A DNA stretch of 64,000 nucleotides from Stappia stellulata (GTDB lineage Bacteria > Pseudomonadota > Alphaproteobacteria > Rhizobiales > Stappiaceae): positions 434,001 through 498,000 of the forward strand of contig NZ_JAIVMF010000001.1 of assembly GCF_020176715.1 (NCBI RefSeq), written 5' to 3'. This document shows, one piece after another, positions 41,250 through 61,357 of this stretch. A program made the translations under genes and the position numbers. The notes below the pieces were generated by a model. That model was not told the origin of the DNA, searched no databases, and saw only the letters and a list, made by a program, of their open reading frames with translations. Position 1 is the stretch's first letter; every line of letters starts with the position of its first letter.

Positions 41250-41957
41250 ATGTCGGAAGAAGAAGACCTCGATCTCGCGTCCCTGTCCGACGATGACCTC
41301 GTCGAGCAGATGCATGACGACCTCTATGACGGCCTCAAGGACGAAATCGTCGAGGGCGTCAACATCCTGCTGGAACGCGGCTGGACCCCTTACGAGGTGC
41401 TGACCAAGGCACTGGTCGAGGGCATGCGCATCGTCGGCGTCGACTTTCGCGACGGCATCCTGTTCGTGCCGGAAGTGCTGATGTCGGCCAATGCCATGAA
41501 GGCGGGCATGCACATCCTGCGCCCGCTTCTGGCGGAAACCGGCGCGCCCAAGGTCGGCAAGATGGTGATCGGCACCGTCAAGGGCGACATCCACGACATC
41601 GGCAAGAACCTCGTTTCCATGATGATGGAGGGCGCGGGCTTCGAGGTGATCGACATCGGCATCAACAACCCGGTCGAGAACTATCTCGCCGCGCTGGAAG
41701 AGCACAAGCCGGACATCCTCGGCATGTCGGCGCTTCTGACCACCACCATGCCCTACATGAAGGTGGTGATCGACGCGATGGTCGAGAAGGGCATTCGCGA
41801 CGACTATATCGTCATGGTCGGCGGCGCACCGCTGAACGAGGAGTTCGGCCAGGCCGTCGGCGCGGACGCCTACGGGCGCGATGCCGCCGTCACCGTCGAA
41901 CTCGCCAAGGACCTGATCGCACGGCGGCACAACCAGCTGGCGGCGCGGGCCGGATAG
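41250..41957 (+). CDS. mtgC-like: Corrinoid protein of a methyltransferase system
   Basis: 235 residues: a helical cap (about 15-105, LLERGWTPYEVLTKALVEGM) and a Rossmann B12 domain with the lower-axial His in DIHDIGKN (the DxHxxG motif), then LGMSALLTTTMPYM and VMVGGAPLN. It shuttles a methyl group from a substrate methyltransferase to a methyl-THF transferase. The first 32 residues are very acidic (14 Asp/Glu). ATG 41250 is chosen because GGAG lies 6 bases upstream; ATG 41223 is in frame. First gene of the corrinoid operon. Closest described role is MttC/MtgC; the substrate partner is not in this operon. Confidence 0.9.
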   Translation: MSEEEDLDLASLSDDDLVEQMHDDLYDGLKDEIVEGVNILLERGWTPYEVLTKALVEGMRIVGVDFRDGILFVPEVLMSANAMKAGMHILRPLLAETGAPKVGKMVIGTVKGDIHDIGKNLVSMMMEGAGFEVIDIGINNPVENYLAALEEHKPDILGMSALLTTTMPYMKVVIDAMVEKGIRDDYIVMVGGAPLNEEFGQAVGADAYGRDAAVTVELAKDLIARRHNQLAARAG

Positions 41958-41969
41958 GACGCAAGGCTC

Positions 41970-42602
41970 ATGGGCGCGCCCGCACCCGAGATGGTTCCGC
42001 CCGGCCCCGTGCCGGGCGATCGCGTTCTGGTCATCGCCTGCGGCGCACTCGCAAACGAGGTGCTGGCGATCACGCGCCAGCACGGGTTGACCCACATCGA
42101 CCTTCAGTGCCTGCCCGCCCAGCTTCACAACCGGCCGGAAAAGATCCCGGACGCCGTGCGCCGGGCCATCCACGTCGCCCGTCACGACTATGAGCGCATC
42201 CTGATCGGCTACGGCGATTGCGGCACGGGCGGGCTGCTCGACAAGGTGCTCGCGGACGAAGGCGTGGAGCGGCTTCCCGGCGCGCATTGCTACGCGTTCT
42301 TCGCCGGTCTTGAGGTCTTCGATGCGGAGGCCGAGGCGGAACCCGGCACCTTCTATCTCACCGATTTCCTGGCCCGCCACTTCGAGACACTGGTGATCCG
42401 GCCGCTCGGTCTCGACAGCCACCCGGAGCTGCGCGACGCCTATTTCGGCAATTACACGCGATTGCTCTATCTGGCCCAGACCGACGATCCCGACCTCGAC
42501 GACCGGGCACGGCGGGCCGCCGACCGCCTCGGCCTTGCCTATGCCCGGCGCCGGACCGGCTACGGGCTGCTGGAAACGCGGCTCGGCGCGCTTTCCGCCT
42601 GA
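41970..42602 (+). CDS. DUF1638 protein
   Basis: 210 residues. Family blocks CGALANEVLAITRQHG, LIGYGDCGTGGLLDKVL, YFGNYTRLLYLAQTDD and the C-terminal RRTGYGLLETRL are visible. DUF1638 genes recur beside corrinoid methyltransferase genes but have no established reaction; cysteines in CGAL and GDCGTGG could bind a metal or cobamide. 12 bases after the corrinoid protein gene, so in the same operon. Confidence 0.88.
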   Translation: MGAPAPEMVPPGPVPGDRVLVIACGALANEVLAITRQHGLTHIDLQCLPAQLHNRPEKIPDAVRRAIHVARHDYERILIGYGDCGTGGLLDKVLADEGVERLPGAHCYAFFAGLEVFDAEAEAEPGTFYLTDFLARHFETLVIRPLGLDSHPELRDAYFGNYTRLLYLAQTDDPDLDDRARRAADRLGLAYARRRTGYGLLETRLGALSA

Positions 42603-42867
42603 ACGCCTCCGCCATTGCGTCGCGCCCGCGATGGGCGTTTCCGCCCGAGCGACACACCGAAGGGTGCCGGCCGGACCTATTTCCCAAGTGTTCCCACCCC
42701 GGTTTTACGGCGGTTTACGGACCACGCGCCTCCCAATACATGGCACCCAAGAAAAACGGCGACGTCATCCTGTCGCATTCAGGATTACGCGTGTCGTCTG
42801 TGCGCCGATGAACCGTCGCGCCGAAGGCATCATGACGGGAACGCAATGAGGCGCATGGAGCGGCCCG

Positions 42868-43163
42868 GTGGCGCAGAAGACAATCGTCTATTGGCGGGAT
42901 ATTCCCGCCCAGGTGCTGGTCAAGGCGGGGCGCAAGACCGCGCGGCGCGAGCTGCCCGCGCGCTTCATCCAGGCCATCGACCGCTGTGCCATGTCCATCG
43001 GGGCGAAGGACAGCGACGCCTATCTGGCCGAGTGGCGGCGCGGCGACCCCGAAAGCGTCGGCGACGATCTGGAACACGAGGCCGATGCCGCGGCTGCGAA
43101 ACTGGAAGCGGACTACACCCCGGAGCGTTTGAAGGCGCTCGTTACCGCCGGAGGGCATGCGAC
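42868..43163 (+). CDS. Small PF13769-type (virulence factor domain) protein
   Basis: 99 residues from GTG 42868 (GGAG 8 bases upstream); the stop at 43165-43167 overlaps the next ATG as ATGA. The motif IVYWRDIPAQVLVKAGR and following RELPARFIQAIDRCAM match small proteins given the uninformative name virulence factor. It is soluble, with no signal peptide. A 265-base gap before it holds tandem CGGTTTTACGG/CGGTTTACGG near 42700-42722 but no gene. Its position between the corrinoid protein and the MTHFR-like gene suggests a part in methyl transfer. Confidence 0.8.
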
Positions 43164-44060
43164 ATGACCGACCCCCGTCTGAATGCCCAGGGGCGCTTCA
43201 CCGCCTCCACCGAAGTCTCGCCGCGCCAGGTGCTGGAAAAGCCGGAGATCCTGGCGCTGGTGCCGCGGCTGACACGGGTCTATCTCACCGATCTCGGCAA
43301 TGCGAGCGAGGACGACATCGTGCGGGCCGCCCTTGGCATACACGATCAGGGGCTGGTGCCGGTGCCGCATATGGCCGCGCGCCGCTACCAAAGCCTTGCG
43401 GCCTTCGACCGGCGGCTGCGCCGGCTGGTGACGGAGGCCGGCGTGCGCGAGGTGCTGGCCATCGCCGGCGAGGCGGAAACGCCGGGTCCCCTCACCTCCT
43501 CCGTCGCCATGCTGGAGACCGGCCTTTTCGACGAGCTCGGCATCGAGCGCATCGCCGTTGCCGGGCACCCGGAGGGCGCGCCGGACATTCCCTCCGACAC
43601 GATCCGCGCCTTCCTGATGCGCAAGCACGAGCTTGCGGCGCAAAGCGACGCGCATTTCCATATCGTCACCCAGTTCGGCTTCGATCCGCAGCGGGTGAAC
43701 ATCTGGCTCGACGAGATCGCCGCCTGGGGCAACCGCTTTCCGGTGCATATCGGCGTCGCCGGTCCGGCGAAGATGACGACGCTTCTGAAATACGCGGCCT
43801 TCGCCGGCGTCGAGAACTCGCTCGCCTTCCTGAAGAAGCGCGGCGGCGCGGTGGTCTCGCTTCTGTCGGGCTACGATCCCGAAAGCATGATCGGCCCGCT
43901 GGAAACGCGCATCGAGACGCGCCCGCACACGCAGCTCGAGCAGATCCACGTCTTTCCCTTCGGCGGCCTGACCAAGACGTCCGAATGGCTCCTTCAGCGC
44001 GGGAGCTGGTCCTATCAGCCCATCCCGCTGCGTCCCTTCCCCGCGGAGATAGCGCAATGA
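43164..44060 (+). CDS. Methylenetetrahydrofolate reductase-like protein
   Basis: 298 residues, TIM-barrel flavoprotein family. VLAIAGEAETPGPLTSS, GIERIAVAGHPEGAPDIP and THFHIVTQFGFDP-like (AHFHIVTQFGFDPQRV) are recognisable MetF-family segments. In this pathway it would oxidise methyl-THF made by the corrinoid system to methylene-THF, opposite to the biosynthetic direction. It overlaps the gene before it and ends with ATGA overlapping the next, so translation is coupled. Confidence 0.85.
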   Translation: MTDPRLNAQGRFTASTEVSPRQVLEKPEILALVPRLTRVYLTDLGNASEDDIVRAALGIHDQGLVPVPHMAARRYQSLAAFDRRLRRLVTEAGVREVLAIAGEAETPGPLTSSVAMLETGLFDELGIERIAVAGHPEGAPDIPSDTIRAFLMRKHELAAQSDAHFHIVTQFGFDPQRVNIWLDEIAAWGNRFPVHIGVAGPAKMTTLLKYAAFAGVENSLAFLKKRGGAVVSLLSGYDPESMIGPLETRIETRPHTQLEQIHVFPFGGLTKTSEWLLQRGSWSYQPIPLRPFPAEIAQ

Positions 44061-45007
44061 CACGCACCATCGTGGCCTCGGCCACAAAAGAGATCATCAT
44101 CGGCTTCGACCAGCCCTTCTGCGTCATCGGCGAGCGCATCAACCCGACGGGGCGCAAGAAGCTCGCCGCCGAGATGATCGCCGGCGATTTCTCCACCGTC
44201 GAAAAGGACGCGCTGGCGCAGGTCGCAGCGGGTGCAACCATGCTCGACGTCAACGCCGGCGTGACCGCCGTCAATCCGAACGAGACCGAGCCGCCGCTTC
44301 TGGTCAAGACGCTGGAGATCGTCCAGGCGCTCACCGACGTGCCGCTGTCGATCGACAGTTCCGTAACGGCGGCGATCGAGGCGGGCCTGCGCGTCGCCAA
44401 GGGGCGTCCGCTGGTCAATTCCGTCACCGGCGAGGAGGAGAAGCTGGAAGCGATCCTGCCGCTCATCAAGAAATACAATGTGCCGGTGGTCGCCATCTCC
44501 AACGACGAGACGGGCATTTCCGAAGACCCGGACGTGCGTTTCGCGGTGGCGAAGAAGATCGTCGAGCGCGCCGCCGACTACGGCATTCCCGCTCATGACA
44601 TCGTCGTCGATCCGCTGGTCATGCCCATCGGCGCCATGGGCACCGCCGGCAAGCAGGTGTTCCAGCTGCTGCGCCGGCTGCGCGAGGAGCTGAAGGTCAA
44701 CACCACCTGCGGGTTGTCGAACATCTCCTTCGGCCTGCCACATCGCCACGGCATCAACGCCGCCTTCATCCCGATGGTGATCACAGCCGGCATGACCAGC
44801 GCGATCATGAACCCCTGCCGCCCGCAGGAAATGGAAGCGGTGCGCGGCGCCAACGTGCTGACCGGCGCCGATCCCAATTGCCACGACTGGATCATGGCCT
44901 ACCGCGATCACACCCCGGGCGCGGTGACGGCCGCAGCCCCTTCGGGCGACGCCGGCGGCGGACGCCGCCGCGGCGGGCGCGAGGGGCGCCGGCGCGCAAG
45001 CGCGTGA
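44057..45007 (+). CDS. Methyltetrahydrofolate:corrinoid methyltransferase
   Basis: 316 residues. Pterin-binding TIM barrel of the MetH-domain/AcsE/MtgA family: FCVIGERINPTGRKKL, MLDVNAGVTAVNPNETE, DVPLSIDSS, RPLVNSVTGE, NTTCGLSNISFGLPHR. It moves methyl groups between the corrinoid protein and THF. The last 17 residues are Gly/Arg-rich (GGGRRRGGREGRRRASA), beyond the conserved barrel; RACo and the BHMT-like protein in this window have similar tails. Overlaps the MTHFR-like gene by 4 bases. Confidence 0.92.
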   Translation: MTRTIVASATKEIIIGFDQPFCVIGERINPTGRKKLAAEMIAGDFSTVEKDALAQVAAGATMLDVNAGVTAVNPNETEPPLLVKTLEIVQALTDVPLSIDSSVTAAIEAGLRVAKGRPLVNSVTGEEEKLEAILPLIKKYNVPVVAISNDETGISEDPDVRFAVAKKIVERAADYGIPAHDIVVDPLVMPIGAMGTAGKQVFQLLRRLREELKVNTTCGLSNISFGLPHRHGINAAFIPMVITAGMTSAIMNPCRPQEMEAVRGANVLTGADPNCHDWIMAYRDHTPGAVTAAAPSGDAGGGRRRGGREGRRRASA

Positions 45008-45042
45008 CCCCCTTGGCCGGGACAGGAACAGCGACGACAGAC

Positions 45043-47103
45043 ATGGCGAAACAGGAGCCGGCCGGCCCGGCCGCGACACAGGATGCCCGCATCGTCTTCC
45101 AGCCGAGCGGCCGGCGGGGCACCTTCCCGCTCGGCACGCCGCTGCTCGATGCGGCGCGCGCGCTCGGCGTCTATGTGGAATCCGTGTGCGGCGGGCGCGG
45201 CATCTGCGGCCGCTGCCAGGTCTCCGTGTCCGAGGGCGCCTTCGCCAAGGAGAAGCTGACAAGTTCCGCCGATCATCTCGGCCCGGTGACCGAGGCGGAA
45301 ACCCGCTACGCCCGCTTGCGCGAGCTCAAGTCGGACCGGCGTCTGTCCTGCCAGGCGACGATCCAGGGCGACATGGTGGTCGACGTTCCGACCGATGCCC
45401 AGACCAACCGCCAGGTGGTGCGCAAGCGCGCGGAAGCGGTGAAGCTCGACGCCGACAGCGCCATCCGCCTCGTCACCGTCTCGATTGCCGAGCCGGACAT
45501 GGACATGCCGCTTGGCGATGCCGACCGGCTGCTTGCAGCACTTGCAGCCGAAACCGGCCTTGCCGGACTGACCCTCGACACGCCGCTTCTGTCGCGCGTG
45601 CAGTCCGTTTTGCACGTCGGCAACTGGCGGGTGACGGCCGCCATCTGGCAGGACGATGCGGCCCCGCCCTGCGTCATCGCTTTGTGGCCGGGCGAAAAGC
45701 GCACCGCCTACGGGCTGGCGGTCGACATCGGCTCCACCACCATCGCCGCGCATCTCTGCGATCTGTCGACAGGCCGCACGGTGACGTCGGCCGGCACCTC
45801 CAACCCGCAGATCCGCTTCGGCGAGGATCTGATGTCGCGCGTCTCCTATGTGCAGATGAACCCGGCGCGTCTGCCGGACCTGATCTCCACCGTGCGCGCC
45901 GCCGTCGACGCGCTGGTCGCCAAGCTCGTCGCCGATGTCGGCGCGACCCGCGACGATGTGCTCGACGCCGTCTTCGTCGGCAATCCGATCATGCATCACC
46001 TGTTTCTCGGCATCGACCCGACGGAGCTTGGCGGCGCGCCCTTCGCGCTGGCCGTCTCCGGCGCGGTGCACACCACGGCGCGCGCGCTCGATCTGGAACT
46101 GAACCCGGGCGCACGCGCCTACATCCTTCCCTGCATTGCCGGTCACGTCGGGGCGGATGCGGCGGCCGCCACGCTCTCCACCCGTCCGTTCGAGGCCGAG
46201 GCGCTGACGCTTGTCGTCGACATCGGCACCAACGCGGAAATCGTGCTCGGCACCCGCGAGCGGCTGCTTGCAGCCAGTTCGCCGACCGGCCCCGCCTTCG
46301 AGGGCGCGGAGATTTCCTGCGGCCAGCGCGCCGCCCCCGGCGCCATCGAGCGCATCCGCATCGACAAGGACACGCTGGAGCCGCGCTACAAGGTGATCGG
46401 CCTCGACGAATGGTCGGACGATCCGGCTTTCGCGGAGAAGAAGGATCAGGTCGGCGTCACCGGCATCTGCGGCTCCGGCATCATCGAGGCGGTGGCCGAG
46501 CTTTATCTCGCCGGCGTGGTCACGCAGGACGGGCGCATCGACGGGCGGCTTGCCGCCAAAAGCCCGCGCATCGTCCAGAAGGGCCGCACCCACGCCTATG
46601 TGGTGGCGAGCGAGGGCATCGAGCTCGTCATCACCCAGACCGACATTCGCGCGATCCAGCTCGCCAAGGCGGCGCTCTATGCCGGCGTGAAGCTCCTGCT
46701 CGACAAGCTCGGCAATCCGGAGATCGCGCGCATTCGGCTCGCCGGTGCCTTCGGCAGCTACATCGATACCAAATACGCCATGATCCTCGGGCTGATCCCC
46801 GATTGCGAGCTTTCCGAGGTCTCCGGCGTCGGCAATGCGGCGGGCACCGGCGCGCGCATGGCGCTGATCAACCGCGGCGAGCGGCGCACGGTCGAGCGGG
46901 TCGTGCGCGAGATCGAGAAGATCGAGACCGCACTGGAGCCGAAATTCCAGGAGCATTTCGTCAACGCCATGGCCTTCCCCAACAAGGTCGACCCCTTCCC
47001 GCGGCTGCGCAGCGTCGTCACCCTGCCCGAGCCGGCCGGGGAGGACGACCCTCCCCAGGACGAAGCCGACACGGGCCGCCGGCGTCGTCGACGCCGGGCC
47101 TGA
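45043..47103 (+). CDS. Corrinoid reductive-activation ferredoxin (RACo/RamA-type ASKHA ATPase)
   Basis: 686 residues: a plant-type 2Fe-2S domain (about 15-105; CGGRGICGRC plus LSCQA), a linker, and two ASKHA ATPase lobes (LAVDIGSTTIAAHL near 225, LVVDIGTNAEIVLG near 390). It uses ATP to return inactive Co(II) corrinoid to Co(I), necessary whenever the cofactor oxidises, which should be frequent in an aerobe. It ends in seven consecutive Arg codons (GRRRRRRRA) using four different Arg codons. ATG 45043 is used; GTG 45004 overlapping the previous stop is possible. Confidence 0.9.
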   Translation: MAKQEPAGPAATQDARIVFQPSGRRGTFPLGTPLLDAARALGVYVESVCGGRGICGRCQVSVSEGAFAKEKLTSSADHLGPVTEAETRYARLRELKSDRRLSCQATIQGDMVVDVPTDAQTNRQVVRKRAEAVKLDADSAIRLVTVSIAEPDMDMPLGDADRLLAALAAETGLAGLTLDTPLLSRVQSVLHVGNWRVTAAIWQDDAAPPCVIALWPGEKRTAYGLAVDIGSTTIAAHLCDLSTGRTVTSAGTSNPQIRFGEDLMSRVSYVQMNPARLPDLISTVRAAVDALVAKLVADVGATRDDVLDAVFVGNPIMHHLFLGIDPTELGGAPFALAVSGAVHTTARALDLELNPGARAYILPCIAGHVGADAAAATLSTRPFEAEALTLVVDIGTNAEIVLGTRERLLAASSPTGPAFEGAEISCGQRAAPGAIERIRIDKDTLEPRYKVIGLDEWSDDPAFAEKKDQVGVTGICGSGIIEAVAELYLAGVVTQDGRIDGRLAAKSPRIVQKGRTHAYVVASEGIELVITQTDIRAIQLAKAALYAGVKLLLDKLGNPEIARIRLAGAFGSYIDTKYAMILGLIPDCELSEVSGVGNAAGTGARMALINRGERRTVERVVREIEKIETALEPKFQEHFVNAMAFPNKVDPFPRLRSVVTLPEPAGEDDPPQDEADTGRRRRRRRA

Positions 47104-47110
47104 GCGGCGT

Positions 47111-47944
47111 CTACCAGCCGCGCCGGATCCAGATCTTTTCGCCGATGAGGCAGTCGTAGGGCGGCTGGAAATTGAACTGCGCCGGCATCACGCGGGCGTT
47201 GCCATCCGGCACGCCCGGCGGCATCAGCCCGCCGATCTCGAGCACCAGCTTGCGACGCACTGCCTCGGCGAACTGGTCCCAGTCGTTGACCGGGATCATG
47301 AAGGCGCCCGGCCCGCCGATCACGCAGCGGCGGTAATATTCGTCGAGATCCGGGATATTGAACTGCGAACCGTAACCGCCCTCGGTCATCAGCGGCAGGC
47401 CGTTGATGGTGATGCCCTTGGCGACCGCCGCGTCGCGCGCCATCGTCACCGGCAGGCCCTGATTGTTCGGCCCGTCGCCGGAGACGTCGATCACCCGCCG
47501 GTCGGGCAGGAACGGAACGGCCTCCAGCAGCTTTACCGCATGCGCGATCCCGCCGGAGATCGATGTCCTCCGTTCGCTCTGGCTGTATTCGCTCAGCAAT
47601 GTCGCCGCGACGGCTTGCGCGTCCTGCGGACCGCCGATCACCGTCCAGCCGACGATCTCGCGCGCATGATGATCGCCCGCCCATTCAAACAGCGTCACCG
47701 CGATGCGCCCGTGCGGTCCTTGCGCAATCGCGCGCAAGACCTGCGAACTGGCAATCGCATCCGCATAGCCACGCCGCTGGATGCGCATTTCCTCATGCGA
47801 CATCGACCGCGACACGTCGACGGCGAGCACCAGCGCCACATCCACGGCGACCTCGGAGCGTGCGGCAGGGACAATCGCCGCAGACACGATTGCGGTAAGG
47901 AAGAAGGCCCGCAGCACCGGGCCGAACTGGCCGAGCATTCGCAT
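47111..47944 (-). CDS. DUF1194 protein with von Willebrand A-like fold
   Basis: 277 residues with signal peptide (about 1-30). The metal-ion-dependent adhesion motif DVSRSMS near 43 and DVSGDG near 153 match the VWA-like DUF1194 family. Predicted to be periplasmic. It converges on the corrinoid operon with an 8-base gap and appears unrelated to it. Confidence 0.85.
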   Translation of the reverse strand: MRMLGQFGPVLRAFFLTAIVSAAIVPAARSEVAVDVALVLAVDVSRSMSHEEMRIQRRGYADAIASSQVLRAIAQGPHGRIAVTLFEWAGDHHAREIVGWTVIGGPQDAQAVAATLLSEYSQSERRTSISGGIAHAVKLLEAVPFLPDRRVIDVSGDGPNNQGLPVTMARDAAVAKGITINGLPLMTEGGYGSQFNIPDLDEYYRRCVIGGPGAFMIPVNDWDQFAEAVRRKLVLEIGGLMPPGVPDGNARVMPAQFNFQPPYDCLIGEKIWIRRGW

Positions 47945-48035
47945 GCCCCAAGACTACCGCAACGTCAGTCTGACGCCAGAGCCGATTGACGTTTGCGTGG
48001 AACAAGCGGCGCGCGATCCTTGACCCGTCCACCAC

Positions 48036-49286: not shown

Positions 49287-49342
49287 GACGCCAGACTAGC
49301 TGCCTCGACAGCCCCCGCCCATCCGTGGTGTTGCGGGGGCGG

Positions 49343-50491
49343 TTAGTCCATTTTGGACGGCGTTGCCTCTCCCCCGCCCCCATCGTCTCCGGTCGGCACA
49401 GCCGCGCTCCCGTCGCCTGCGGCTTGCCGGATGGTTTCCCTGGAACGTTGCAGATGCTCGGCGATCCTCTCCATCGCCGAATCGATGACCTGACGATAAG
49501 TGTCGTCGATGAAGCCGAAGACCTTTTCGTAATCGGCAAATCCGCGCTCGATCTGACCTTGCAGGAAGGCCATCGCGCGCGTCACGGCCTCGTCGTCGGG
49601 GTCGCCCAACCGACCGTGCGAGGCCTGAATGCAGCCGAAGGCGGTTCCAGGCGTTCGCGAAAAGCCGAAAGAGCGCGCATCTTCCACCAGGAGGATCGAC
49701 GGTTTGCGGTTGCGAAGAAAATGGATGTGGCCGTGGAGCCTGTAGCCGATGTGAAGATCGATCTCCGCATAAGCGCCGAGGTTCTCGGCCGGTCCGGCAA
49801 GCCGCAGGGAGTGGAAGCCGAGTTGCTTGGCGCGTGCCTCGAGTATCGACAGCAACGGCCCGCCAACGCTGTGGAGAGACACATAACGCGGCGAATCCGG
49901 GAACCGTTTCCTAACCGACTTGAGCAACTCGACGCTCTGCTCCAGGTAGCTGACGCCGTGCTGGAGACTGACGACAATGCTCGGCACCTCGGGAACCGGA
50001 ACCGGGTCCCTGCCAATGCGATCGGCATCGAAGAGCGCCATATCGCCGGAGTAAATGGCGGGAATCCCGTTTCGTTGAAGCCGTTGGACAATCATTTCGT
50101 CGCGACAGGGGAACGGACCATGACGTTCGGCCATCCTGCCGAGAAAATTGCGTGTTGCGGCATCCATGGCCACATCGAAAAACGCCGCCGGCGATGCGTC
50201 CACATGCTGATAGGCGCAACCGAGCGGAAAGAACCCGTCGATCCTGTCGAGGTCGTCGAACAGCGAATAAAGTCCGGGGTATGTCTTGTTCGTGACCGCA
50301 AACCCCGGCGCTATGACGTTGTGGCGGACCTTCTTGGTGAACCCGTTCAGGCTCTTTTCCCGAAAAAACAGAATCGGGTCGAAGTCCGGCCATTTGTTGC
50401 GGACGAGCGCAAGGGTTGATGCGGTGATCAGCGCGTCGCCGACGTTTTGAGACTTGTGCTCCGGATAGGTCGTCAGAAGGATGTCGGTCAT
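49343..50491 (-). CDS. Polysaccharide pyruvyl transferase family protein
   Basis: 382 residues. Features of this family are QNVGDALITASTLALV at the N-terminus and HIGYRLHGHIHFLRNRKPS with the catalytic-region His/Arg at about 245-265. It would add pyruvate to a sugar of an exopolysaccharide or surface glycan. No other glycan genes surround it. The last 30 residues are low-complexity Gly/acidic. Confidence 0.78.
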   Translation of the reverse strand: MTDILLTTYPEHKSQNVGDALITASTLALVRNKWPDFDPILFFREKSLNGFTKKVRHNVIAPGFAVTNKTYPGLYSLFDDLDRIDGFFPLGCAYQHVDASPAAFFDVAMDAATRNFLGRMAERHGPFPCRDEMIVQRLQRNGIPAIYSGDMALFDADRIGRDPVPVPEVPSIVVSLQHGVSYLEQSVELLKSVRKRFPDSPRYVSLHSVGGPLLSILEARAKQLGFHSLRLAGPAENLGAYAEIDLHIGYRLHGHIHFLRNRKPSILLVEDARSFGFSRTPGTAFGCIQASHGRLGDPDDEAVTRAMAFLQGQIERGFADYEKVFGFIDDTYRQVIDSAMERIAEHLQRSRETIRQAAGDGSAAVPTGDDGGGGEATPSKMD

Positions 50492-50745
50492 GGCGCTTTC
50501 GTGAAGTGAGGAAACGAATCCGCGCCATCATAGCGCCCAGCACGGCCCTGTCGCCGACAAGCCGCGGCAACGCGCAGTCCGGCGCTGGGAATCTCTCCCC
50601 GACGGGGGGGAGTGTAGCGTGGATGGGAGGTTGAGCACCAAAGACGGGCTCCCCCATACACACCGGCCATACAACCTATTGACGAAATGTGTGAATGGTC
50701 GACAATTTGGAATCTCAAAACATTTGAAGATTGAGGAGTTTTAAG

Positions 50746-51249
50746 GTGCGTTGGTTTTTCACAGTCATTCTCGTAACGCTGAGTGTTTCTTCATGGCCGG
50801 TCAACGCCGGATTTGATCGCTGGACCGCTGACAAAAAGTCCGACCCGTTTTCGGGAGGCCAGAAGGTTACGGTCACAAACATGTCTTCAATGCGCTCAGG
50901 AATTGTCATTTTCTGCGATAGCGCCGAAACCGGGCTGACAGTAAGAGCGATACCCGGCTACGCTTATCAAGCCGCCTTGGCCCTGATCGAGCCGGACATT
51001 CAGTTTGCCTTCGACGGCAAGAAGATGCTCAGCCAGAAGGGGGAAACAGGGACCGTCGGCGATAACCTTGCCGTATCGCAAGTCACGCTGTCTCCTGAAA
51101 ATTCAAGAATTTTTGCGAAAGCGTTCGCCGGAGCTGTCAAGCAAGTCGCTATCCAGGATGGTATCTCGGATCAGCCCCATTTGATGACGGCGCGGGGGTC
51201 AACCAAATCCGGACGTGCCCTTATCGAATGCATGCAAAGTCAAGAATAG
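50746..51249 (+). CDS. Exported protein of unknown function, lower GC
   Basis: 167 residues from GTG 50746 (GAGGAG 7 bases upstream), with a signal peptide (FFTVILVTLSVSS, cleavage near NAGF). The mature protein is small and soluble (SSMRSGIVIFCDSAETG; ISDQPHLMTARGSTKSG). I do not recognise it. Base composition is visibly lower in GC than the flanking genes, and the 254 bases before it are also AT-rich near the start, which may mark acquired DNA. Confidence 0.6.
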   Translation: MRWFFTVILVTLSVSSWPVNAGFDRWTADKKSDPFSGGQKVTVTNMSSMRSGIVIFCDSAETGLTVRAIPGYAYQAALALIEPDIQFAFDGKKMLSQKGETGTVGDNLAVSQVTLSPENSRIFAKAFAGAVKQVAIQDGISDQPHLMTARGSTKSGRALIECMQSQE

Positions 51250-51259
51250 TCGCCCCCCC

Positions 51260-52270
51260 TTACACCCGCCTGCGTCTCCCGCGCCGCCCGGCGCCGGTGT
51301 CGTCGCCGCTCTCCGCCGCCGGCGGGGAGACGAGCGGGCCGATGCGCGCGACGACCTCGTCGACGCTGGGGCGGGTGCCCGCCTCATGCGCGTCGATGGC
51401 TGCACGCATCGCGGCCAGATGGGCGTAGGAGGTGCCGCAGCAGCCGCCGATGATGCGCGCGCCGGCATCCATTGCAAGCCGCGCATAGTCGCCCATCAAC
51501 TCCGGCGTGCCGGTGTAGACCACCGCGTCGCCCTGAATGACCGGAATGCCGCAGTTCGCCTTGGCGATCACGACGGCCTCCGGATAGGTCTGCGTGATGT
51601 CCAGGATCGCGGCGAGCAGATCCGACGCGCCGACCCCGCAGTTGGAGCCGTAGGCCACCGGCGTGCAGGCGAACTCTCCGGCAAGCGCGCCGAGACCGGC
51701 CGGTTTCAGCCCCATCATCGTGCGCCCGGCGGTGTCGAAACTCGCCGTCACCACGAAGGGCATGTCGACGGCAGCCGCCGCCTCGGCCGCTGCGCGCATT
51801 TCCTCCGCAGCCGACATGGTCTCGATCCACAGCACATCCGCGCCGCCGTCCTTCAACCCTTGCGCCTGTTCGGCGAAGGCTGCGACCGCATCCTCATGGG
51901 TGAGCGCGCCGAGCGGGACGAAGAGCTCGCCCGTCGGGCCGATGGAACCGCCGACGATCACCGGACGCCCGGCACTCTCGGCCACCTCGCGCGCCAGACG
52001 CGCGGCGGCGGCGTTCAGCTCATTCACCCGCCCCTCCAGCTTGTGCAGCTTCAGCCGGTGACGGTTGGCGCCGAAGGTGTTGGTCAGGATGATATCGGCG
52101 CCGGCCTCGACGAAATTTCGATGCAGCGCGCGGATCTTGTCGGGCTCGGTGACATTCCACTCCTCCGGCGGATCGCCGGACGTCAGCCCCATGTCGAAGA
52201 GATTGGTGCCGGTCGCCCCGTCGGCGAGCAGCGTGCCCTTCTCCGCCAGAAGATCCTCAAGTCTGTTCAC
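51260..52270 (-). CDS. Betaine-homocysteine S-methyltransferase-like protein
   Basis: 336 residues from GTG 52270 (GAGGAAC upstream; the longer ATG frame enters the repeat region). A homocysteine-binding TIM barrel with LADGATGTNLFDMG, the zinc ligands GSNCGVG near 215 and GGCCGTS near 283. It methylates homocysteine to methionine; the rhizobial relatives use glycine betaine as donor. The C-terminus is Arg-rich (GRRGRRRRV), as in the corrinoid partners, so a methyl-corrinoid donor is possible too. Convergent with the unknown exported gene. Confidence 0.82.
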   Translation of the reverse strand: MNRLEDLLAEKGTLLADGATGTNLFDMGLTSGDPPEEWNVTEPDKIRALHRNFVEAGADIILTNTFGANRHRLKLHKLEGRVNELNAAAARLAREVAESAGRPVIVGGSIGPTGELFVPLGALTHEDAVAAFAEQAQGLKDGGADVLWIETMSAAEEMRAAAEAAAAVDMPFVVTASFDTAGRTMMGLKPAGLGALAGEFACTPVAYGSNCGVGASDLLAAILDITQTYPEAVVIAKANCGIPVIQGDAVVYTGTPELMGDYARLAMDAGARIIGGCCGTSYAHLAAMRAAIDAHEAGTRPSVDEVVARIGPLVSPPAAESGDDTGAGRRGRRRRV

Positions 52271-52357
52271 TGGCCTGTTCCTCACGTTTCCACGCGGCTC
52301 TGCATCCCGCCGCCGCCACACACGCCACGCAACACAAACTGCGCATGTGCCCGACCC

Positions 52358-52450
52358 CACACACCGACGTCACCCACGGCTCGACCGGGGTCCATTCCAC
52401 GGCGCCGCCCAACCCGGGGCGCGTGGAGGCGCAAACGCATTCGCCACCGC
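52358..52450. repeat. Intergenic direct repeat, copy 1
   Basis: Starts CACACACCGACGTCACCC and includes GGTCCATTCCACGGCGCC and CGCCACCGC. It aligns with copy 2 at 52705-52797 with moderate divergence. An inverted partner GGACCCCGG...GGGGTGACG follows near 52483-52521. Together these fill the 541-base gap 52271-52811, where no gene is seen. Confidence 0.55.
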
Positions 52451-52704
52451 TCCGGCCTCCACTCCTGCCGGGGTTGCCAATGGACCCCGGATCTTCGGCT
52501 GCGCCTGCGTCCGGGGTGACGTCGGGGGAGATGGCGTCCATTGCGCCCCGCCCGCCGACACCCCAACCACGCACGCACCCAAGGCGGAAGCAGATCGCAA
52601 GCCCTGCCTCCCCGCACAACCGGCCTCCCGGCGGAGGAGGCGGGCATGCCCTTCGGCCCACACAGTCCCTGTGCCGCCCCCAGAACCGGGTACGAGCTTC
52701 GCCG

Positions 52705-52797
52705 CACACACCGATGTCATCCCGGCCCCCGAGCCGGGATCCATTCCACATCGCTGCCCAACCTGGCGCGCGCGGCACCGCGACTCCACCCGCCACC
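52705..52797. repeat. Intergenic direct repeat, copy 2
   Basis: Begins CACACACCGATGTCATCCC, then GCCGGGATCCATTCCAC and CTGCCCAACC; alignable with copy 1 about 350 bases upstream. The GTCATCCCGG...CCGGGATC core resembles the repeat at 39791. It ends just short of the stop of the FAD dehydrogenase gene. Confidence 0.55.
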
Positions 52798-52811
52798 GCG
52801 CCCCGCGTCCC

Positions 52812-55373
52812 TCAGCTCCTCGGCTTCAGGTTCTGCGGATCGTAGAGCGGCGCGTAGCCGACGCCGGCGACCTCGACGGGGAAGGTTTCGGAAAAATACT
52901 CCACGGTGAGTTCGCGTCCCACTTGCGCAAAGTCCGCCGGCAGATAGGCGAGCGCGATGTTCTTCCCCACCGTCGGACCATAGGCAATCGACGTGGTGTA
53001 GGAGCGACGGCCCAGCGCATCGACCAGCGTCTCGCCGGTCGCCGGATCGATCACCGGCAGCGTGCCGACCGGATAGCGAGCCGTGCCGCCTGCATCGGTG
53101 TTGTCGGTCATCACCAGCGTGCAGAGCATGGCCGGCTGGCGGTCGCGGGCGCGGTATTCCAGGTGCTTTTGCTTGCCGCGGAAGTCGGCCTCCTTGACCT
53201 TGGGCCGGGCGAGATCGGCCTCATAGAGATTGTATTGGGTGAGAAGATCGGCGTTTTGCAAACGCAGCGACTTTTCCAGCCGCCGGGAATTGGCATAGGT
53301 CTCCACCCCGACCGCCGTAATGCCGAGGCCACGCAGCGCGTCCCAGACCGCGAGACCGTCCTCATAGGCCATATGCAGTTCCCAGCCCTGCTCGCCGACA
53401 TAGGAGAGGCGAAGCGCGGTCACGGATTTGCCGGCGATCTCGATCTGGCGGATCGCTGCAAAGGGGAAGTTTTCAGGATCGAGGCCGGCCGGATCGGCCA
53501 CCACCTTCTTCAGGTTTTCCCGCGCATTCGGCCCCCAGATGCCGATGGTGGTGAATTGCTCGCTGACGTCGGTGACCGTGACGTCGAAGCCCCTGTCCTC
53601 GGCCACACGCTTCACATAATGGAAGTCGCGCGGGCCGGCATCGGCGCCATCGACGATGCGGCAGCGGTCGGCCATGCGAAACACCGTGAGGTCGGCGCGC
53701 ACCATGCCCTCGTCATCGAGGAAATGGGTGTAGATCCCCTTGCCGATGTTGCCGTCGCCGCCGATCTTCGCGGCACACAGCCATTCCAGCAGCGCCACAT
53801 GGTCCGGCCCCGCAACATCGAACATGTAGAAATGCGAGAGGTTGATCACCCCGCAATCCTCGCTCATCGCCAGGTGCTCGGCATTGGAGACGCGCCAGAA
53901 ATGGCGGGCGTCCCATTCGTTCTCGCGGACCGGGATGCGGTCGGCGTATTTTTCCAGCAGATGCGCGTTGGCGGCATAGCCATGGGCGCGCTCCCAGCCG
54001 CCAAGCTCCATGAAGTGGCCGCCTAGCTCCACCTCGCGTTCGTAGAAGGGCGAGCGCTTGACGCCGCGCCCGCTGGCATAGGGCTCGCGCGGGTGGATCG
54101 CGGGAAAGTAAATCTTCTGCGCCGCCTCGTAGCAGCGCCCCTCGATGAAGGCTTCCTCCATCTGATGCGCATAGAAACGGGAATAGTCGATGGCCGCGTG
54201 GTCGATCTCCGTGCGCCCGTCGGTGATCCAGTCGGCGAGAAGCTTGCCGTAGGCCGGCGCGTCCTTCACCCAGATGGCGACGCAATACCACAGCCCGCGC
54301 ACCTTCTGGCTTTCGCCGCAGGACGGCCCGCCGGCGGCGGAGACCTGCAGGAGGCCGTTGAACGACCAGGTCTCGTTATAGCCGAGTTCGCCGAGGATCG
54401 GCGTCAGCTCCATGGCGCGCTCGAGCGGTTCCATCACCTGCTCCAGCTCCAGATCGCGTTGGGAGGGCGACAGCCGCGCCTCCTCCTTTTCCAGCAGGTC
54501 GCGCGGATGGCACAGGCGCGGATTGTCGGTCTCGTAATAGCCCCACTCGATCTGACCGCCCTCGGTGGTCTTCGGGTCGCCGGTGTCGCGCATATAGGCG
54601 GAGTTGCCCTGGTCGCGCATCAGCGGATAGCCGATGTCCTTGCCGGTGCCGGCGAACTCGGTGAAGGGACCGAAGAAGGTCAGCGGATGGTCGACCGGCA
54701 TCACCGGAAGGTCCTCGCCGACCAAATTGGCGATCAGCCGGCCCCAGAGGCCGGCGCAAACGATGACGTGATCGGCCCGGATCGTGCCGCGATGGGTGAC
54801 GACGCCCGTGATGCGTCCGCCGTCCACGATCAGCGATTTCGCAGGCGTATTGGCGAAGGCCTTGAGCGCGCCCGTCTTTTCCCCCTCGTCGACGAGTTTG
54901 CCGGCGACGGCCTGCGAGCGCGGCACGACAAGGCCGGCATCGGGGTCGTACAACCCGCCCTGGACCTGATCCTCCTCGATCAGCGGGAACTTTTCCTTGA
55001 TCTCGGAGGGTGTGACGAGGTGCGCGCGTGTCCCGAAGGCCTTGCCCGAGGAGACCTTGCGCCTGATCTCCTCCATCCAGGTGTCGTCGCCGGTGCGCGC
55101 CACCTCGAAGCCGCCGCAGCGCTCGTAGTTTCCCATTATGTCGAAGAAATCGATGGAATAGAGCGACGTCCAGGTGGAGAGGAAGTCGTGGCTCGTCGAA
55201 TAGCAGAAGTCGGAGGCATGCGCCGTCGAGCCGATGTCGGTCGGAATGCCGGACTTGTCGATACCGACGATATCGGTCCAGCCGCGCTCGATCAGGTGAT
55301 GCGCGACCGACGCGCCCACGATCCCGCCCAGTCCGACGATGACGATCTGTGCCTTGTCAGGAAAAGCCGACAT
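52812..55373 (-). CDS. Dimethylglycine/sarcosine dehydrogenase (FAD-GcvT fusion)
   Basis: 853 residues: FAD oxidase domain (about 8-370; VIVGLGGIVGASVAHHL) and a folate-binding GcvT domain (about 430-845). STAHAS near residue 50 contains the His that carries covalent FAD in related enzymes. It demethylates dimethylglycine or sarcosine and loads the one-carbon unit onto THF as methylene-THF. Divergent from the MttB-family gene, which would make dimethylglycine if glycine betaine is its substrate. Which of the two amines it prefers cannot be read from the sequence. Confidence 0.88.
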   Translation of the reverse strand: MSAFPDKAQIVIVGLGGIVGASVAHHLIERGWTDIVGIDKSGIPTDIGSTAHASDFCYSTSHDFLSTWTSLYSIDFFDIMGNYERCGGFEVARTGDDTWMEEIRRKVSSGKAFGTRAHLVTPSEIKEKFPLIEEDQVQGGLYDPDAGLVVPRSQAVAGKLVDEGEKTGALKAFANTPAKSLIVDGGRITGVVTHRGTIRADHVIVCAGLWGRLIANLVGEDLPVMPVDHPLTFFGPFTEFAGTGKDIGYPLMRDQGNSAYMRDTGDPKTTEGGQIEWGYYETDNPRLCHPRDLLEKEEARLSPSQRDLELEQVMEPLERAMELTPILGELGYNETWSFNGLLQVSAAGGPSCGESQKVRGLWYCVAIWVKDAPAYGKLLADWITDGRTEIDHAAIDYSRFYAHQMEEAFIEGRCYEAAQKIYFPAIHPREPYASGRGVKRSPFYEREVELGGHFMELGGWERAHGYAANAHLLEKYADRIPVRENEWDARHFWRVSNAEHLAMSEDCGVINLSHFYMFDVAGPDHVALLEWLCAAKIGGDGNIGKGIYTHFLDDEGMVRADLTVFRMADRCRIVDGADAGPRDFHYVKRVAEDRGFDVTVTDVSEQFTTIGIWGPNARENLKKVVADPAGLDPENFPFAAIRQIEIAGKSVTALRLSYVGEQGWELHMAYEDGLAVWDALRGLGITAVGVETYANSRRLEKSLRLQNADLLTQYNLYEADLARPKVKEADFRGKQKHLEYRARDRQPAMLCTLVMTDNTDAGGTARYPVGTLPVIDPATGETLVDALGRRSYTTSIAYGPTVGKNIALAYLPADFAQVGRELTVEYFSETFPVEVAGVGYAPLYDPQNLKPRS

Positions 55374-55638
55374 GCTTCAACCCCTTCACTCCCCGCCGGC
55401 GCGCGGCGGATCCTGCGTTTCGTGCCGGCAGTATCGCGGGAATTTTCCGGGCCAAGTTGTCCAATTGCGTCATCCTTGTATCGCCGCGCCGACAAGGCGG
55501 CGCAAAAGCGGGTCGCCGGATCCATGACGCTTTTAGAGAAGCCGACGACGCTTTCGGGCATCAGCCTCTCGCCCATTGCGCGCACAGTACGCTGGGCGTT
55601 CGCAGGAAGACGCGACGAAATCCGGGTGGAGTGCAGGA

Positions 55639-57180
55639 ATGAGCGAACAGGCAGAGCGCGCGGGACGACGCGGACGGGCGGCCCGAACGGAAAAACGACG
55701 CGGCGCGGAAGCAGGCGCCAGCATTCCCTATATCTCGCGCAACCTCCCGCTTCTCAACATCCTGAGCGACGAGGGTGCGGAGGTCATCGAGGCCAACGCC
55801 GACCGGCTGCTCGCCGAGATCGGCCTGGAGTTTCGCGACGATCCGGAAACGCTGAAGATCTGGAAGGACGCCGGCGCGGATGTCGACGGCGAGCGGGTGC
55901 GCTTTCCCAAGGGGATGCTGCAGGAGCTGGTGAAGACCGCGCCGGCGCAGTTCACCCAGCATGCCCGCAATCCGGCCCGCAACGTGGAGATCGGCGGCAA
56001 CAACACGGTGTTTGCGCCCGTCTACGGCCCGCCCTTCGTCACCGATCTCGACCGCGGCCGGCGCTATGGCACCATCGAGGATTTCCGCAATTTCGTGAAG
56101 CTCGCCTATGCCTCGCCCTGGCTGCATCATTCCGGCGGCACCGTGTGCGAGCCGGTCGACCTGCCGGTCAACAAGCGCCATTTCGACATGGTGTATTCCC
56201 ACCTGAAATATTCCGACAAGCCGTTCATGGGCTCGGTAACCGCACCGGAACGGGCGGAGGATTCCGTCGCCATGGCGCGGCTCGTCTTCGGCGATCAGTT
56301 CGTCGACGAGAACTGCGTGATGATCCAGCTGATCAACGCCAACTCGCCGCTGGTGTTCGATGCGACGATGCTCGGCGCGCTGAAGGTCTATGCGGCGGCG
56401 AACCAGGCCTGCATCGTGTCGCCCTTCATTCTCGCCGGCGCGATGAGCCCGGTCACGGTCGCCGGCACGCTGGCGCAGGTGCTCGCCGAGGCGCTGGCCG
56501 GTTGCGCGCTGACCCAGCTGGTGCGCCCCGGCGCGCCGGTGGTCTTCGGCGCCTTCGTTTCCTCCATCTCCATGCAGTCGGGCGCGCCGACCTTCGGCTC
56601 GCCGGAAGGCACGCTGCTGCTCAACGGCGCGGCGAAGCTTGCCCGGCGCGCGGGCCTGCCGTTCCGCTCGGGCGGATCCTTCACCGCCTCCAAGACGCCG
56701 GACGCGCAATCGGCGCAGGAATCCACCCAGACCATCATGGCGACCCTGCTGTCGGGCGTGAATTTCGCGCTGCACGCCGCAGGCTGGCTGGAGGGCGGGC
56801 TGTGCTCGTCTTATGAGAAATTCGTGATGGACGCCGACCAGCTCGGCATGATGCATGTGCTGGCGAAAGGCATCGACCTGTCGCAGGAGGCGCAGGCCAT
56901 GGATGCGCTGGCGGAGGTCGGGCCCGGCGGGCATTTCCTCGGCGCCGCCCACACCCAGCGAAATTTCGAGACCGCCTTCTATCGCTCCGCGATCGCCGAC
57001 AACAACTCCTACGAACAATGGAGTTCGGACGGCGGGCTGGATGCCGGCATGCGGGCGAATCAAAGGTGGAAACAGATGCTTGCTTCCTATGAAGCTCCTC
57101 CGCTCGACCCGGCGGTCGACGAGGCGCTGATCGCGTTCATGGCACGGCGAAAGGCGGAATTCCCGGACAGCAACATTTAG
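55639..57180 (+). CDS. mtgB-like: MttB-superfamily (non-pyrrolysine) methyltransferase
   Basis: 513 residues; trimethylamine-methyltransferase fold (VFAPVYGPPFVTDLDRGRRYG, SGGTVCEPVDLPVNKRHFD, MLGALKVYAAANQACIVSPF, FGAFVSSISMQSGAPTFGSPEG). The frame is uninterrupted, so there is no UAG pyrrolysine as in true MttB; such members include glycine betaine, proline betaine and carnitine methyltransferases. It should methylate the corrinoid protein encoded at 41.2 kb. The N-terminus is Arg-rich (GRRGRAARTEKRRG). ATG 55639; GGAG lies upstream. Expected substrate: glycine betaine, given the dehydrogenase next door. Confidence 0.87.
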   Translation: MSEQAERAGRRGRAARTEKRRGAEAGASIPYISRNLPLLNILSDEGAEVIEANADRLLAEIGLEFRDDPETLKIWKDAGADVDGERVRFPKGMLQELVKTAPAQFTQHARNPARNVEIGGNNTVFAPVYGPPFVTDLDRGRRYGTIEDFRNFVKLAYASPWLHHSGGTVCEPVDLPVNKRHFDMVYSHLKYSDKPFMGSVTAPERAEDSVAMARLVFGDQFVDENCVMIQLINANSPLVFDATMLGALKVYAAANQACIVSPFILAGAMSPVTVAGTLAQVLAEALAGCALTQLVRPGAPVVFGAFVSSISMQSGAPTFGSPEGTLLLNGAAKLARRAGLPFRSGGSFTASKTPDAQSAQESTQTIMATLLSGVNFALHAAGWLEGGLCSSYEKFVMDADQLGMMHVLAKGIDLSQEAQAMDALAEVGPGGHFLGAAHTQRNFETAFYRSAIADNNSYEQWSSDGGLDAGMRANQRWKQMLASYEAPPLDPAVDEALIAFMARRKAEFPDSNI

Positions 57181-57260: not shown

Positions 57261-57504
57261 CTGAAGTATTGGGCAAACCGTGCAGGCACCCGCCTCACGC
57301 AACAGCATGGCTTTGTTTTTCTTTGCAATTTTAATAATTTTTCCGCTCACCCCCTTTCATTGTGAGTCAAATTTTGCTTAGCTGACGCGACTTTCAGGGT
57401 CTTGAAACGAACCATAAAGAGTTCGTGGCAGGGGAACAGCGCGTTACGCTCCGTCTTTCAGCCGGAAGAGCGTGCCCCTTGCTATGCATTGCTTAGGGGC
57501 ACAG

Positions 57505-58599: not shown

Positions 58600-58701
58600 G
58601 CCGACACGGGCCCGAACGAAGATTGCGGCGCGCGGCACCGCGCCCGCAGCCCTTCCCGGGGCATCGCCTCGGGCGAACACCAAAACGAGGGGACTTACTC
58701 C

Positions 58702-59802: not shown

Positions 59803-59811
59803 CACCCGTCC

Positions 59812-59842
59812 GGCGGCGGAGCACGCGCTCCGCCGCCTTTTT
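59812..59842 (+). terminator. Terminator/attenuator inside the transporter operon
   Basis: GGCGGCGGAGC (59812-59822), loop ACGC, GCTCCGCCGCC (59827-59837), TTTTT. A perfect 11-base stem 10 bases after the binding-protein stop and 206 bases before the first permease. It should lower permease expression relative to the binding protein. Confidence 0.85.
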
Positions 59843-60047
59843 CACGCTGACGACTTCCGGGCCCTGTGCGCCCGTCAAGACACTCCGAATTCGAGGTGCC
59901 CGCACGACAGGGCACCCTGCCAGGCCGGCCGGGGCCGGTTGGCGCGGACAACACACGGCGGTTTCGCGCCGGAGACGCCGGGGGTCCGGTACGGCTTCGA
60001 CGCCAAGACGCTGATAACAGAAAACTTCCTTCCGACGGGGCGTCCCG

Positions 60048-61343: not shown

Positions 61344-61357
61344 GGAGAACACAGACC

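What the first reader, a model, noticed from the sequence alone, without database searches (positions are those of the whole stretch)
41250..57180. Aerobic corrinoid- and THF-dependent methylamine demethylation system, probably for glycine betaine
Seen: a corrinoid protein with DIHDIGKN, a methyl-THF:corrinoid transferase, an MTHFR-like protein, a corrinoid-reactivating ferredoxin (2Fe-2S CGGRGICGRC plus ASKHA lobes), an MttB-family enzyme with an uninterrupted frame, and a dimethylglycine/sarcosine dehydrogenase. Known: such sets demethylate glycine betaine, proline betaine or carnitine in anaerobes. Inference: here the same chemistry runs in a bacterium whose photolyase, ECF11 promoter and FAD oxidases suggest an aerobic life, with the methyl group leaving via MTHFR and formate-THF ligase (35.4 kb) as formate plus ATP.
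Basis: partly seen in the sequence, partly recalled or inferred. Interest (0 to 1): 0.78.

Follow-up and report, generated by a model that had tools for sequence, protein, structure and literature searches.

The report
Aerobic vitamin-B12 glycine-betaine demethylation gene cluster
A marine-type bacterium carries the gene set for stripping methyl groups from (probably) glycine betaine with vitamin B12 and folate in air, a pathway described in print in 2025, plus a small companion gene mislabelled 'virulence factor' that looks like an overlooked part of it.

Summary
51260-52360(-) encodes MtgE/Bmt (also missed), 52812-55373(-) a dimethylglycine-oxidase relative, 55639-57180 a non-pyrrolysine MttB.

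The reading is supported by homology and context but is not new. Mausz et al. 2025 (PMC12478193) showed genetically in Ruegeria pomeroyi that MtgC and MtgD serve both glycine betaine demethylation and methionine synthesis, and describe the co-located set in Sinorhizobium meliloti. This genome (near Stappia) also keeps a full MetH. MetF2's nearest solved relative is the SYK-6 MTHFR, reported to oxidise methyl-THF.

My addition: PF13769 ('Virulence_fact', 99 aa) tracks the system. In the family (87 genomes) it occurs in 60 of the 61 genomes with DUF1638 and in none without. In 153 genomes of the class it shares 31 with MtgD; 2 have only PF13769, 1 only MtgD, 119 neither. Its predicted fold is confident and has no significant PDB match. 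The slot between it and MtgD holds MetF2, MetV+MetF or nothing. Substrate and PF13769 function are inferred, not shown.

The parts
41250..41957 (+). MtgC-like corrinoid-binding protein (235 aa)
   Evidence: Pfam B12-binding and B12-binding_2; NCBIfam MtgC_2 213.6 bits, below its cut-off of 370; solved relatives 1Y80 198.8 bits, 4JGI 130.9 bits
41970..42602 (+). DUF1638 protein, likely corrinoid reactivation factor (210 aa)
   Evidence: PF07796 110.7 bits; fitness link to methionine synthesis in Phaeobacter inhibens in PMC5764234 (passages)
42868..43167 (+). PF13769 'Virulence_fact' small protein (99 aa), proposed unrecognised component
   Evidence: 97.9 bits; co-occurrence; neighbourhood; fold model
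43164..44060 (+). MetF2, SYK-6-type methylenetetrahydrofolate reductase, probably oxidative (298 aa)
   Evidence: profile 260 bits to 7XG9; model matches 7XLF/7XG9 of Sphingobium SYK-6 best, E about 2e-19
44057..45007 (+). MtgD/MtgA-like methyl-THF:corrinoid methyltransferase (316 aa)
   Evidence: Pterin_bind 99 bits, PRK07535 406.6 bits
45043..47103 (+). RACo/RamA-like ATP-dependent corrinoid activase (686 aa)
   Evidence: RACo_C_ter 303, Raco_middle 156.7, RACo_linker 71.7, Fer2 29.8 bits
51260..52360 (-). MtgE / Bmt homocysteine methyltransferase module; family match begins at residue 32, so the true start is probably about 75 bases inside
   Evidence: PRK07534 511.7 bits; 160.4 bits to a MetH homocysteine domain against 54.7 to human BHMT
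52812..55373 (-). dimethylglycine oxidase/dehydrogenase-like, FAD plus folate-binding domains (853 aa)
   Evidence: 1PJ5 345.4 bits, mammalian DMGDH 4PAB 251.9 bits
55639..57180 (+). MttB-superfamily methyltransferase, MtgB candidate (513 aa); Phe348 where 7XCL has X
   Evidence: PF06253 801.7 bits; 771 bits to 4YYC, 450-451 to MtgB 9YCE/2QNE, 134.7 to 7XCL
57472..62212 (+). Pot-type ABC importer: ATPase 57472-58599, binding protein 58702-59802, permeases 60048-61343 and 61358-62212; possible substrate uptake, substrate unknown
   Evidence: Pfam and NCBIfam; all four at 79-87% identity in Stappia albiluteola locus L011
35433..37103 (+). formate-tetrahydrofolate ligase, possible C1 exit
   Evidence: FTHFS 910.9 bits, PRK13505 942.7 bits

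Best explanation
An aerobic MtgBCD(E)-type system. Shown here: the genes, their families, their order and their company in relatives. Inferred from families and from genetics in R. pomeroyi: (1) MttB-like MtgB moves a methyl group from a quaternary amine, most likely glycine betaine, to Co(I) of MtgC; (2) RACo, with DUF1638, re-reduces cobalamin that has oxidised to Co(II); (3) MtgD passes the methyl to THF; (4) MetF2 oxidises methyl-THF to methylene-THF, which feeds C1 oxidation (FolD-type steps not checked; PurU and Fhs present); (5) the DMG oxidase-like enzyme takes the resulting dimethylglycine further, its C1 again caught on THF. MtgE can divert methyl from MtgC to homocysteine, here beside a complete MetH. 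PF13769 is proposed as a dedicated partner between the corrinoid and folate halves; its biochemical role is not known, and a docking or assembly role is my guess.
For: Complete gene set. Among 54 MttB loci of at least 18 kb (of the 80 best relatives fetched), MtgC, RACo and MtgD each lie within reach in 39, PF13769 in 37, DUF1638 in 36, MtgE in 29 (identity 35% or more). Genetics and proteomics of the homologous system in R. pomeroyi, and the same co-location reported in S. meliloti (PMC12478193). S. meliloti Ak57 pSymB has bmt, MttB, corrinoid protein, DUF1638, 'virulence factor', MetV, MetF, MtgD and activase together. An Azoarcus plasmid has the C/DUF1638/PF13769/MetVF/D/activase set flanked by glycine betaine ABC transporter genes. 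DMG oxidase-like neighbour. SYK-6-type MetF2 with reported oxidative preference (PMC13001107 passages). Cobalamin riboswitch at 116-348 and CobN, CobQ/CbiA-type and CobW-type genes just left of the window. Two COX1-family oxidases.
Against: No substrate test. A DMGDH-like gene at 35% identity or more lies near MttB in only 5 of the 54 long loci. No MttB gene is listed in the Azoarcus stretch. NCBIfam's MtgC and MttB equivalog cut-offs are not reached. The neighbouring importer is polyamine-type, not a known betaine importer. The genome has a second MttB on contig 16 in a different branch, so which one takes glycine betaine is open. Purified P. inhibens Bmt took methyl groups directly from betaine and DMSP (PMC12366255, abstract and passages), an alternative entry. 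An AdoMet- or B12-independent oxygenase route was only tested through GbcB (138 bits against a cut-off of 500); GbcA was not tested.
Confidence: 0.8

Rival explanations
1. Same chemistry, other substrate: MttB demethylates another quaternary amine (carnitine, proline betaine, choline or a compound imported by the Pot-type transporter).
For: MttB-superfamily members take different amines (named in PMC12478193 discussion); polyamine-type importer next to MttB; an M24 creatinase/prolidase-type gene follows; the genome has two MttB genes.
Against: Dimethylglycine-oxidase-like neighbour; closeness to solved MtgB (450-451 bits) over MttB of trimethylamine (134.7 bits); glycine betaine transporter genes flanking the same set in Azoarcus.
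Confidence: 0.15
2. The 41-47 kb cluster plus MtgE is chiefly a split methionine synthase, as in P. inhibens, and MttB is a bystander.
For: MtgE is present and resembles a MetH homocysteine domain; in P. [quoted passage not shown]
Against: This genome has a complete MetH at 1764.9 bits, so methionine does not need it (no MetE by PF01717); MetF2 is an oxidative-type MTHFR; MttB genes and DUF1638 occur in exactly the same 61 of 87 family genomes.
Confidence: 0.07
3. Glycine betaine is demethylated mainly by the 51260-52360 protein acting as a stand-alone betaine-homocysteine methyltransferase.
For: P. inhibens Bmt made methionine from betaine and DMSP in vitro at equal enzyme and donor concentration (PMC12366255 passages); NCBIfam names the family betaine-homocysteine methyltransferase.
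Against: 160.4 bits to MetH against 54.7 to human BHMT, the latter over residues 47-221 only; Mausz et al. state that the S. meliloti homologue lacks glycine betaine-binding residues and that the bhmt mutant grows on glycine betaine with methionine. I did not check those residues in this protein.
Confidence: 0.08

Closest known systems
MtgBCDE of Ruegeria pomeroyi DSS-3 and of Sinorhizobium meliloti (PMC12478193)
   Same: Same modules: pfam06253 MtgB, corrinoid MtgC, pterin-binding MtgD, homocysteine-binding MtgE, RamA-type activase, DUF1638, MetF2; cobalamin genes near by as in S. meliloti.
   Different: Here one near-complete cluster with MetF2 of SYK-6 type between PF13769 and MtgD, where S. 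meliloti has MetV+MetF; a full MetH is kept, which that paper reports as the less common case; PF13769 is not mentioned in its main text (0 occurrences of 'virulence').
MtgABC of Desulfitobacterium hafniense (anaerobic glycine betaine demethylation; via PMC12478193 and PMC7154762 listing)
   Same: MttB-type enzyme, corrinoid protein and THF methyltransferase with the same division of labour.
   Different: Aerobic-type host; MtgC reported as a distinct lineage; MttB here scores 450-451 bits to solved MtgB against 771 to 4YYC.
Split methionine synthase of Phaeobacter inhibens (PMC5764234)
   Same: Separate corrinoid, pterin and homocysteine modules with DUF1638 and a RamA-like protein.
   Different: Here with MttB, MetF2 and a DMG oxidase-like gene, and beside a complete MetH.
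LigM/MetF one-carbon route of Sphingobium SYK-6
   Same: MetF2 is closest to the SYK-6 MTHFR among solved structures.
   Different: Methyl source is an aromatic methoxy group via LigM, without a corrinoid protein (LigM detail recalled).

Membership tests
MttB superfamily, non-pyrrolysine (MtgB-like) | PF06253 over full length, frame uninterrupted by TAG | tested here: met
   801.7 bits, profile 2-500 of 500; no internal stop; Phe348 aligned with X334 of 7XCL (that X334 is pyrrolysine is recalled)
MttB superfamily, non-pyrrolysine (MtgB-like) | methyl transfer from glycine betaine to corrinoid | not testable with these tools
   needs enzyme assay
Trimethylamine methyltransferase equivalog TIGR02369 | score over 525 bits | tested here: not met
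   274.8 bits; so it is not filed as a trimethylamine methyltransferase
Aerobic MtgBCDE system (Mausz et al. 2025) | MtgB, MtgC, MtgD and MtgE modules with activase and DUF1638 | tested here: met
   all within 41250-57180
Aerobic MtgBCDE system (Mausz et al. 2025) | mtgC and mtgD needed for growth on glycine betaine and, without MetH, for methionine | not testable with these tools
   genetics needed; here MetH is present
NCBIfam MtgC (NF047996, NF047995) | score over 370 or 310 bits | tested here: not met
   213.6 and 181.1 bits; consistent with the separate MtgC lineage reported for aerobes
Oxidative SYK-6-type MTHFR | nearest solved relative is SYK-6 MTHFR, fold agrees | tested here: met
   260.2 bits against 51.3 for the next; TM 0.79-0.80 by query length
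Oxidative SYK-6-type MTHFR | preference for methyl-THF oxidation | not testable with these tools
   enzyme assay
Betaine-homocysteine methyltransferase (BHMT) | glycine betaine-binding residues of human BHMT | not tested
   only overall scores compared
Glycine betaine monooxygenase route (GbcAB) | GbcB over 500 bits in the genome | tested here: not met
   best 138.1 bits at contig 2; GbcA not searched
PF13769 Virulence_fact | score over 25 bits | tested here: met
   97.9 bits, full profile

The most novel reading that the evidence does not exclude
The 99-residue PF13769 protein, annotated 'virulence factor', is a dedicated and so far unrecognised component of the aerobic corrinoid methyltransferase system: a small protein of a fold not yet seen in the PDB that links the corrinoid half (MtgC-DUF1638) with the folate half (MtgD-MTHFR), possibly an adaptation to running Co(I) chemistry in air; and the MTHFR slot beside it is modular (SYK-6-type MetF2, acetogen-like MetV+MetF, or empty).
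Probability: 0.55. Interest if true: 0.55.

Novelty: new member of a known kind. Interest (0 to 1): 0.4.

Why it matters
The cluster shows the 2025 aerobic glycine betaine route in a compact form in a Stappia-like genome that kept MetH, so the catabolic role can be studied apart from methionine synthesis. If PF13769 proves to be a component, a family now labelled 'virulence factor' gets a function in a pathway reported as widely expressed in the ocean, and a simple gene deletion can test it.

Tried and rejected
PF13769 against the PDB by profile gave only two antibody chains at E 0.08 and 0.14, taken as chance. Foldseek of its model gave no match at E 0.001 or better; best E 0.44 with probability 0.06. 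The second structural aligner was not available. A paper search for CvfC, YpgR and 'conserved virulence factor C' listed 10 of 62 papers, none seen to bear on this system (listing only). The promoter and terminator scan found no more than shuffles (1 against mean 0.6; 3 against mean 3.2). Rfam at E 0.1 found nothing in 39700-64000. No Rfam or promoter evidence links the cluster to the cobalamin riboswitch at 116-348. I considered reading the cluster as a pure split methionine synthase and set it low because MetH is complete. I considered a role of PF13769 in DUF1638 alone, and dropped it because PF13769 stands without DUF1638 in 3 of 33 class genomes (one of them a 34.5-bit match at a contig end in a 7%-contaminated genome) and lies by MtgD without DUF1638 near in 6 of 31.
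Full report
What is there. The finding's genes are real. Reading from 41.25 kb: an MtgC-like corrinoid protein (41250-41957+), DUF1638 (41970-42602+), a 99-residue PF13769 protein (42868-43167+), a short MTHFR (43164-44060+), a methyl-THF:corrinoid methyltransferase (44057-45007+) and a RACo-type activase (45043-47103+). Three frames of other kinds follow on the minus strand (DUF1194, amino-acid permease, PS_pyruv_trans), then a homocysteine methyltransferase (51260-52360-), a dimethylglycine-oxidase-like protein (52812-55373-), divergent from it MttB (55639-57180+), and a Pot-type ABC importer to 62212. Four frames overlap or nearly touch from PF13769 to MtgD, which suggests one transcript; no promoter or terminator evidence was found beyond chance.

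Whose genome. The genome has 4.55 Mb in 58 contigs. The closest named MttB relatives are in Stappia albiluteola (84% over 1-513) and Roseibium sediminis (86% over 28-513); Stappia is in Stappiaceae, Alphaproteobacteria. It holds a complete MetH (1764.9 bits), no MetE by PF01717, two MttB genes, two COX1-family oxidases, PurU (327.5 bits over a cut-off of 286), and GbcB only below cut-off (138 of 500). Left of the window lie CobN, a CobQ/CbiA-type and a CobW-type gene, and the window starts with a cobalamin riboswitch on the minus strand.

Is it known? Yes, in the main. Mausz et al. 2025 (PMC12478193; abstract with introduction, results and discussion read) show in R. pomeroyi that MtgC and MtgD mutants lose methionine prototrophy and growth on glycine betaine, and that methionine restores only the first. 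They find the modules together in S. meliloti with cobalamin genes. Price et al. 2018 (PMC5764234; [quoted passage not shown] inhibens with RamA-like and DUF1638 proteins. A third paper (PMC12366255; abstract and 12 of 42 passages) reports that P. inhibens Bmt can take methyl groups directly from betaine and DMSP in vitro, which conflicts in part with the module-only view of MtgE. In the window, the Bmt/MtgE protein scores 160.4 bits to a MetH homocysteine domain and 54.7 to human BHMT, which leans to the module view but does not decide it.

Substrate. MttB scores 771 bits to 4YYC, 450-451 to MtgB (9YCE, 2QNE) and 134.7 to trimethylamine methyltransferase 7XCL; that 4YYC is from S. meliloti is recalled, and 2QNE is named MtgB in PMC9842639 (passages). 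At the place of X334 in 7XCL it has Phe348. In a FastTree of 89 sequences, midpoint-rooted and printed without support values, the window MttB groups with Stappia, Roseibium, Labrenzia and Cohaesibacter sequences, and the second MttB of the genome (contig 16) falls in another branch. The neighbour at 52812-55373 is closest to dimethylglycine oxidase (345.4 bits) and dimethylglycine dehydrogenase (251.9) among solved structures. In an Azoarcus plasmid the same C-to-activase set is flanked by genes annotated as glycine betaine transporter, though no MttB is listed in that stretch. Glycine betaine is therefore the best guess; it is not shown.

C1 exit. A profile of 14 MetF2 sequences matches the SYK-6 MTHFR at 260 bits, and the next solved MTHFR at 51. 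The AlphaFold2 model (pLDDT 85.7) has SYK-6 MTHFR as its three best Foldseek matches. A review (PMC13001107, passages) says the SYK-6 enzyme prefers oxidation of methyl-THF. This supports outward flow. Formate-THF ligase at 35433-37103 and PurU are present, but formate plus ATP as product is inference.

The MTHFR slot. Of 80 MttB loci fetched (the best of 589 relatives), 39 hold PF13769 and MtgD on one strand. Between them lie MetF2 in 9 (gap 0.8-0.9 kb), MetV plus MetF in 20 (gap 1.5-1.8 kb, both found in 20 of 20), next to nothing in 9 (gap 72 bases or less, no MTHFR module elsewhere in those loci), and a 0.9 kb gap without a MetF2 match in 1 (L083). Pfam was run on three of these type-B proteins: PF12225 for one MetV, MTHFR for two MetF. 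S. meliloti Ak57 and Azoarcus carry the MetV+MetF form in their annotation. That MetV belongs with MetF in acetogens is from the review passages.

PF13769. (a) Family level, 87 genomes: PF13769 in 60, DUF1638 in 61, MttB in 61; DUF1638 and MttB are in the same 61, and PF13769 lacks only in G077, which is 85% complete. (b) Class level, 153 genomes drawn evenly over 141 genera: PF13769 33, DUF1638 31, MtgD 32. With MtgD: 31 both, 2 PF13769 only (G092, G131), 1 MtgD only (G148), 119 neither. With DUF1638: 30 both, 3 and 1 alone, 119 neither. Fisher p values (7e-29 and 3e-27) ignore relatedness and are only a guide. (c) Neighbourhood: of the 31 genomes with both PF13769 and MtgD, PF13769 is within 5 kb of both MtgD and DUF1638 in 14, of DUF1638 only in 9, of MtgD only in 6, of neither in 2 (G087, near a contig end; G186, next to MetF2). 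Of 29 class loci of about 3 kb, 28 have another component beside it; the exception is L138. (d) Conservation: 15 invariant columns in 34 sequences (34 of the 45 found), among them Trp9, Arg10, Asp11, Pro13, Gln15. (e) Fold: pLDDT 92.2, pTM 0.80, one of five models poor at 67.3; no PDB match at E 0.001. (f) Controls: of 14 named control genomes, only Bacillus subtilis has PF13769, while Methanosarcina acetivorans, an anaerobe, has MttB and DUF1638 but not PF13769. So PF13769 is neither confined to this system nor needed in every corrinoid system; one anaerobe is too few to call it aerobe-specific. (g) Print: 'virulence' does not occur in the main text of PMC12478193; a search for DUF1638, split methionine synthase and virulence factor found two papers, neither with the last term; in PMC12366255 the word occurs once in a passage not shown to me. 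Supplements were not available. P. inhibens fitness data did not list such a gene among the five for methionine (passages), so if it acts, it may be in the demethylation direction.

Verdict. Worth following: the PF13769 protein and the exchangeable MTHFR module.

Noticed in passing
window 42868-43167: PF13769 'virulence factor' protein as an apparent unrecognised component of the Mtg system; confident predicted fold without a significant PDB match.
   Followed up: yes
window 43164-44060 and loci L011-L090: The slot between PF13769 and MtgD holds a SYK-6-type MetF2 (9), MetV+MetF (20), nothing (9) or an unassigned 0.9 kb (1) in 39 loci.
   Followed up: partly
G000 contig 16:35169-36665 (L002, L008): A second MttB-family gene (765 bits) in another branch of the tree, with no corrinoid, MtgD or DUF1638 match in the 19.5 kb fetched around it.
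   Followed up: partly
window 40022-41092 (-): A protein with an N-terminal part weakly like HisA/nitronate monooxygenase and a C-terminal methylglyoxal synthase domain (PRK05234 127 bits over its cut-off of 84), just upstream and divergent from mtgC.
   Followed up: no
window 116-348 (-): Cobalamin riboswitch (111.4 bits) reading leftward towards CobW, CobN and CobQ/CbiA-type genes outside the window.
   Followed up: partly
window 62450-63664 (+): M24 creatinase/prolidase-type protein after the Pot-type importer; scores far below the cut-offs of ectoine hydrolase and DddP models.
   Followed up: no
window 49343-50491 (-): Polysaccharide pyruvyl transferase-type protein between the activase and mtgE, with no evident tie to the pathway.
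   Followed up: no
G000 contig 13:17624-21184 (L003): Complete MetH with an MTHFR-like frame (152 bits with the MetF2 profile) beside it, so the genome has a second, separate MTHFR-like gene.
   Followed up: partly
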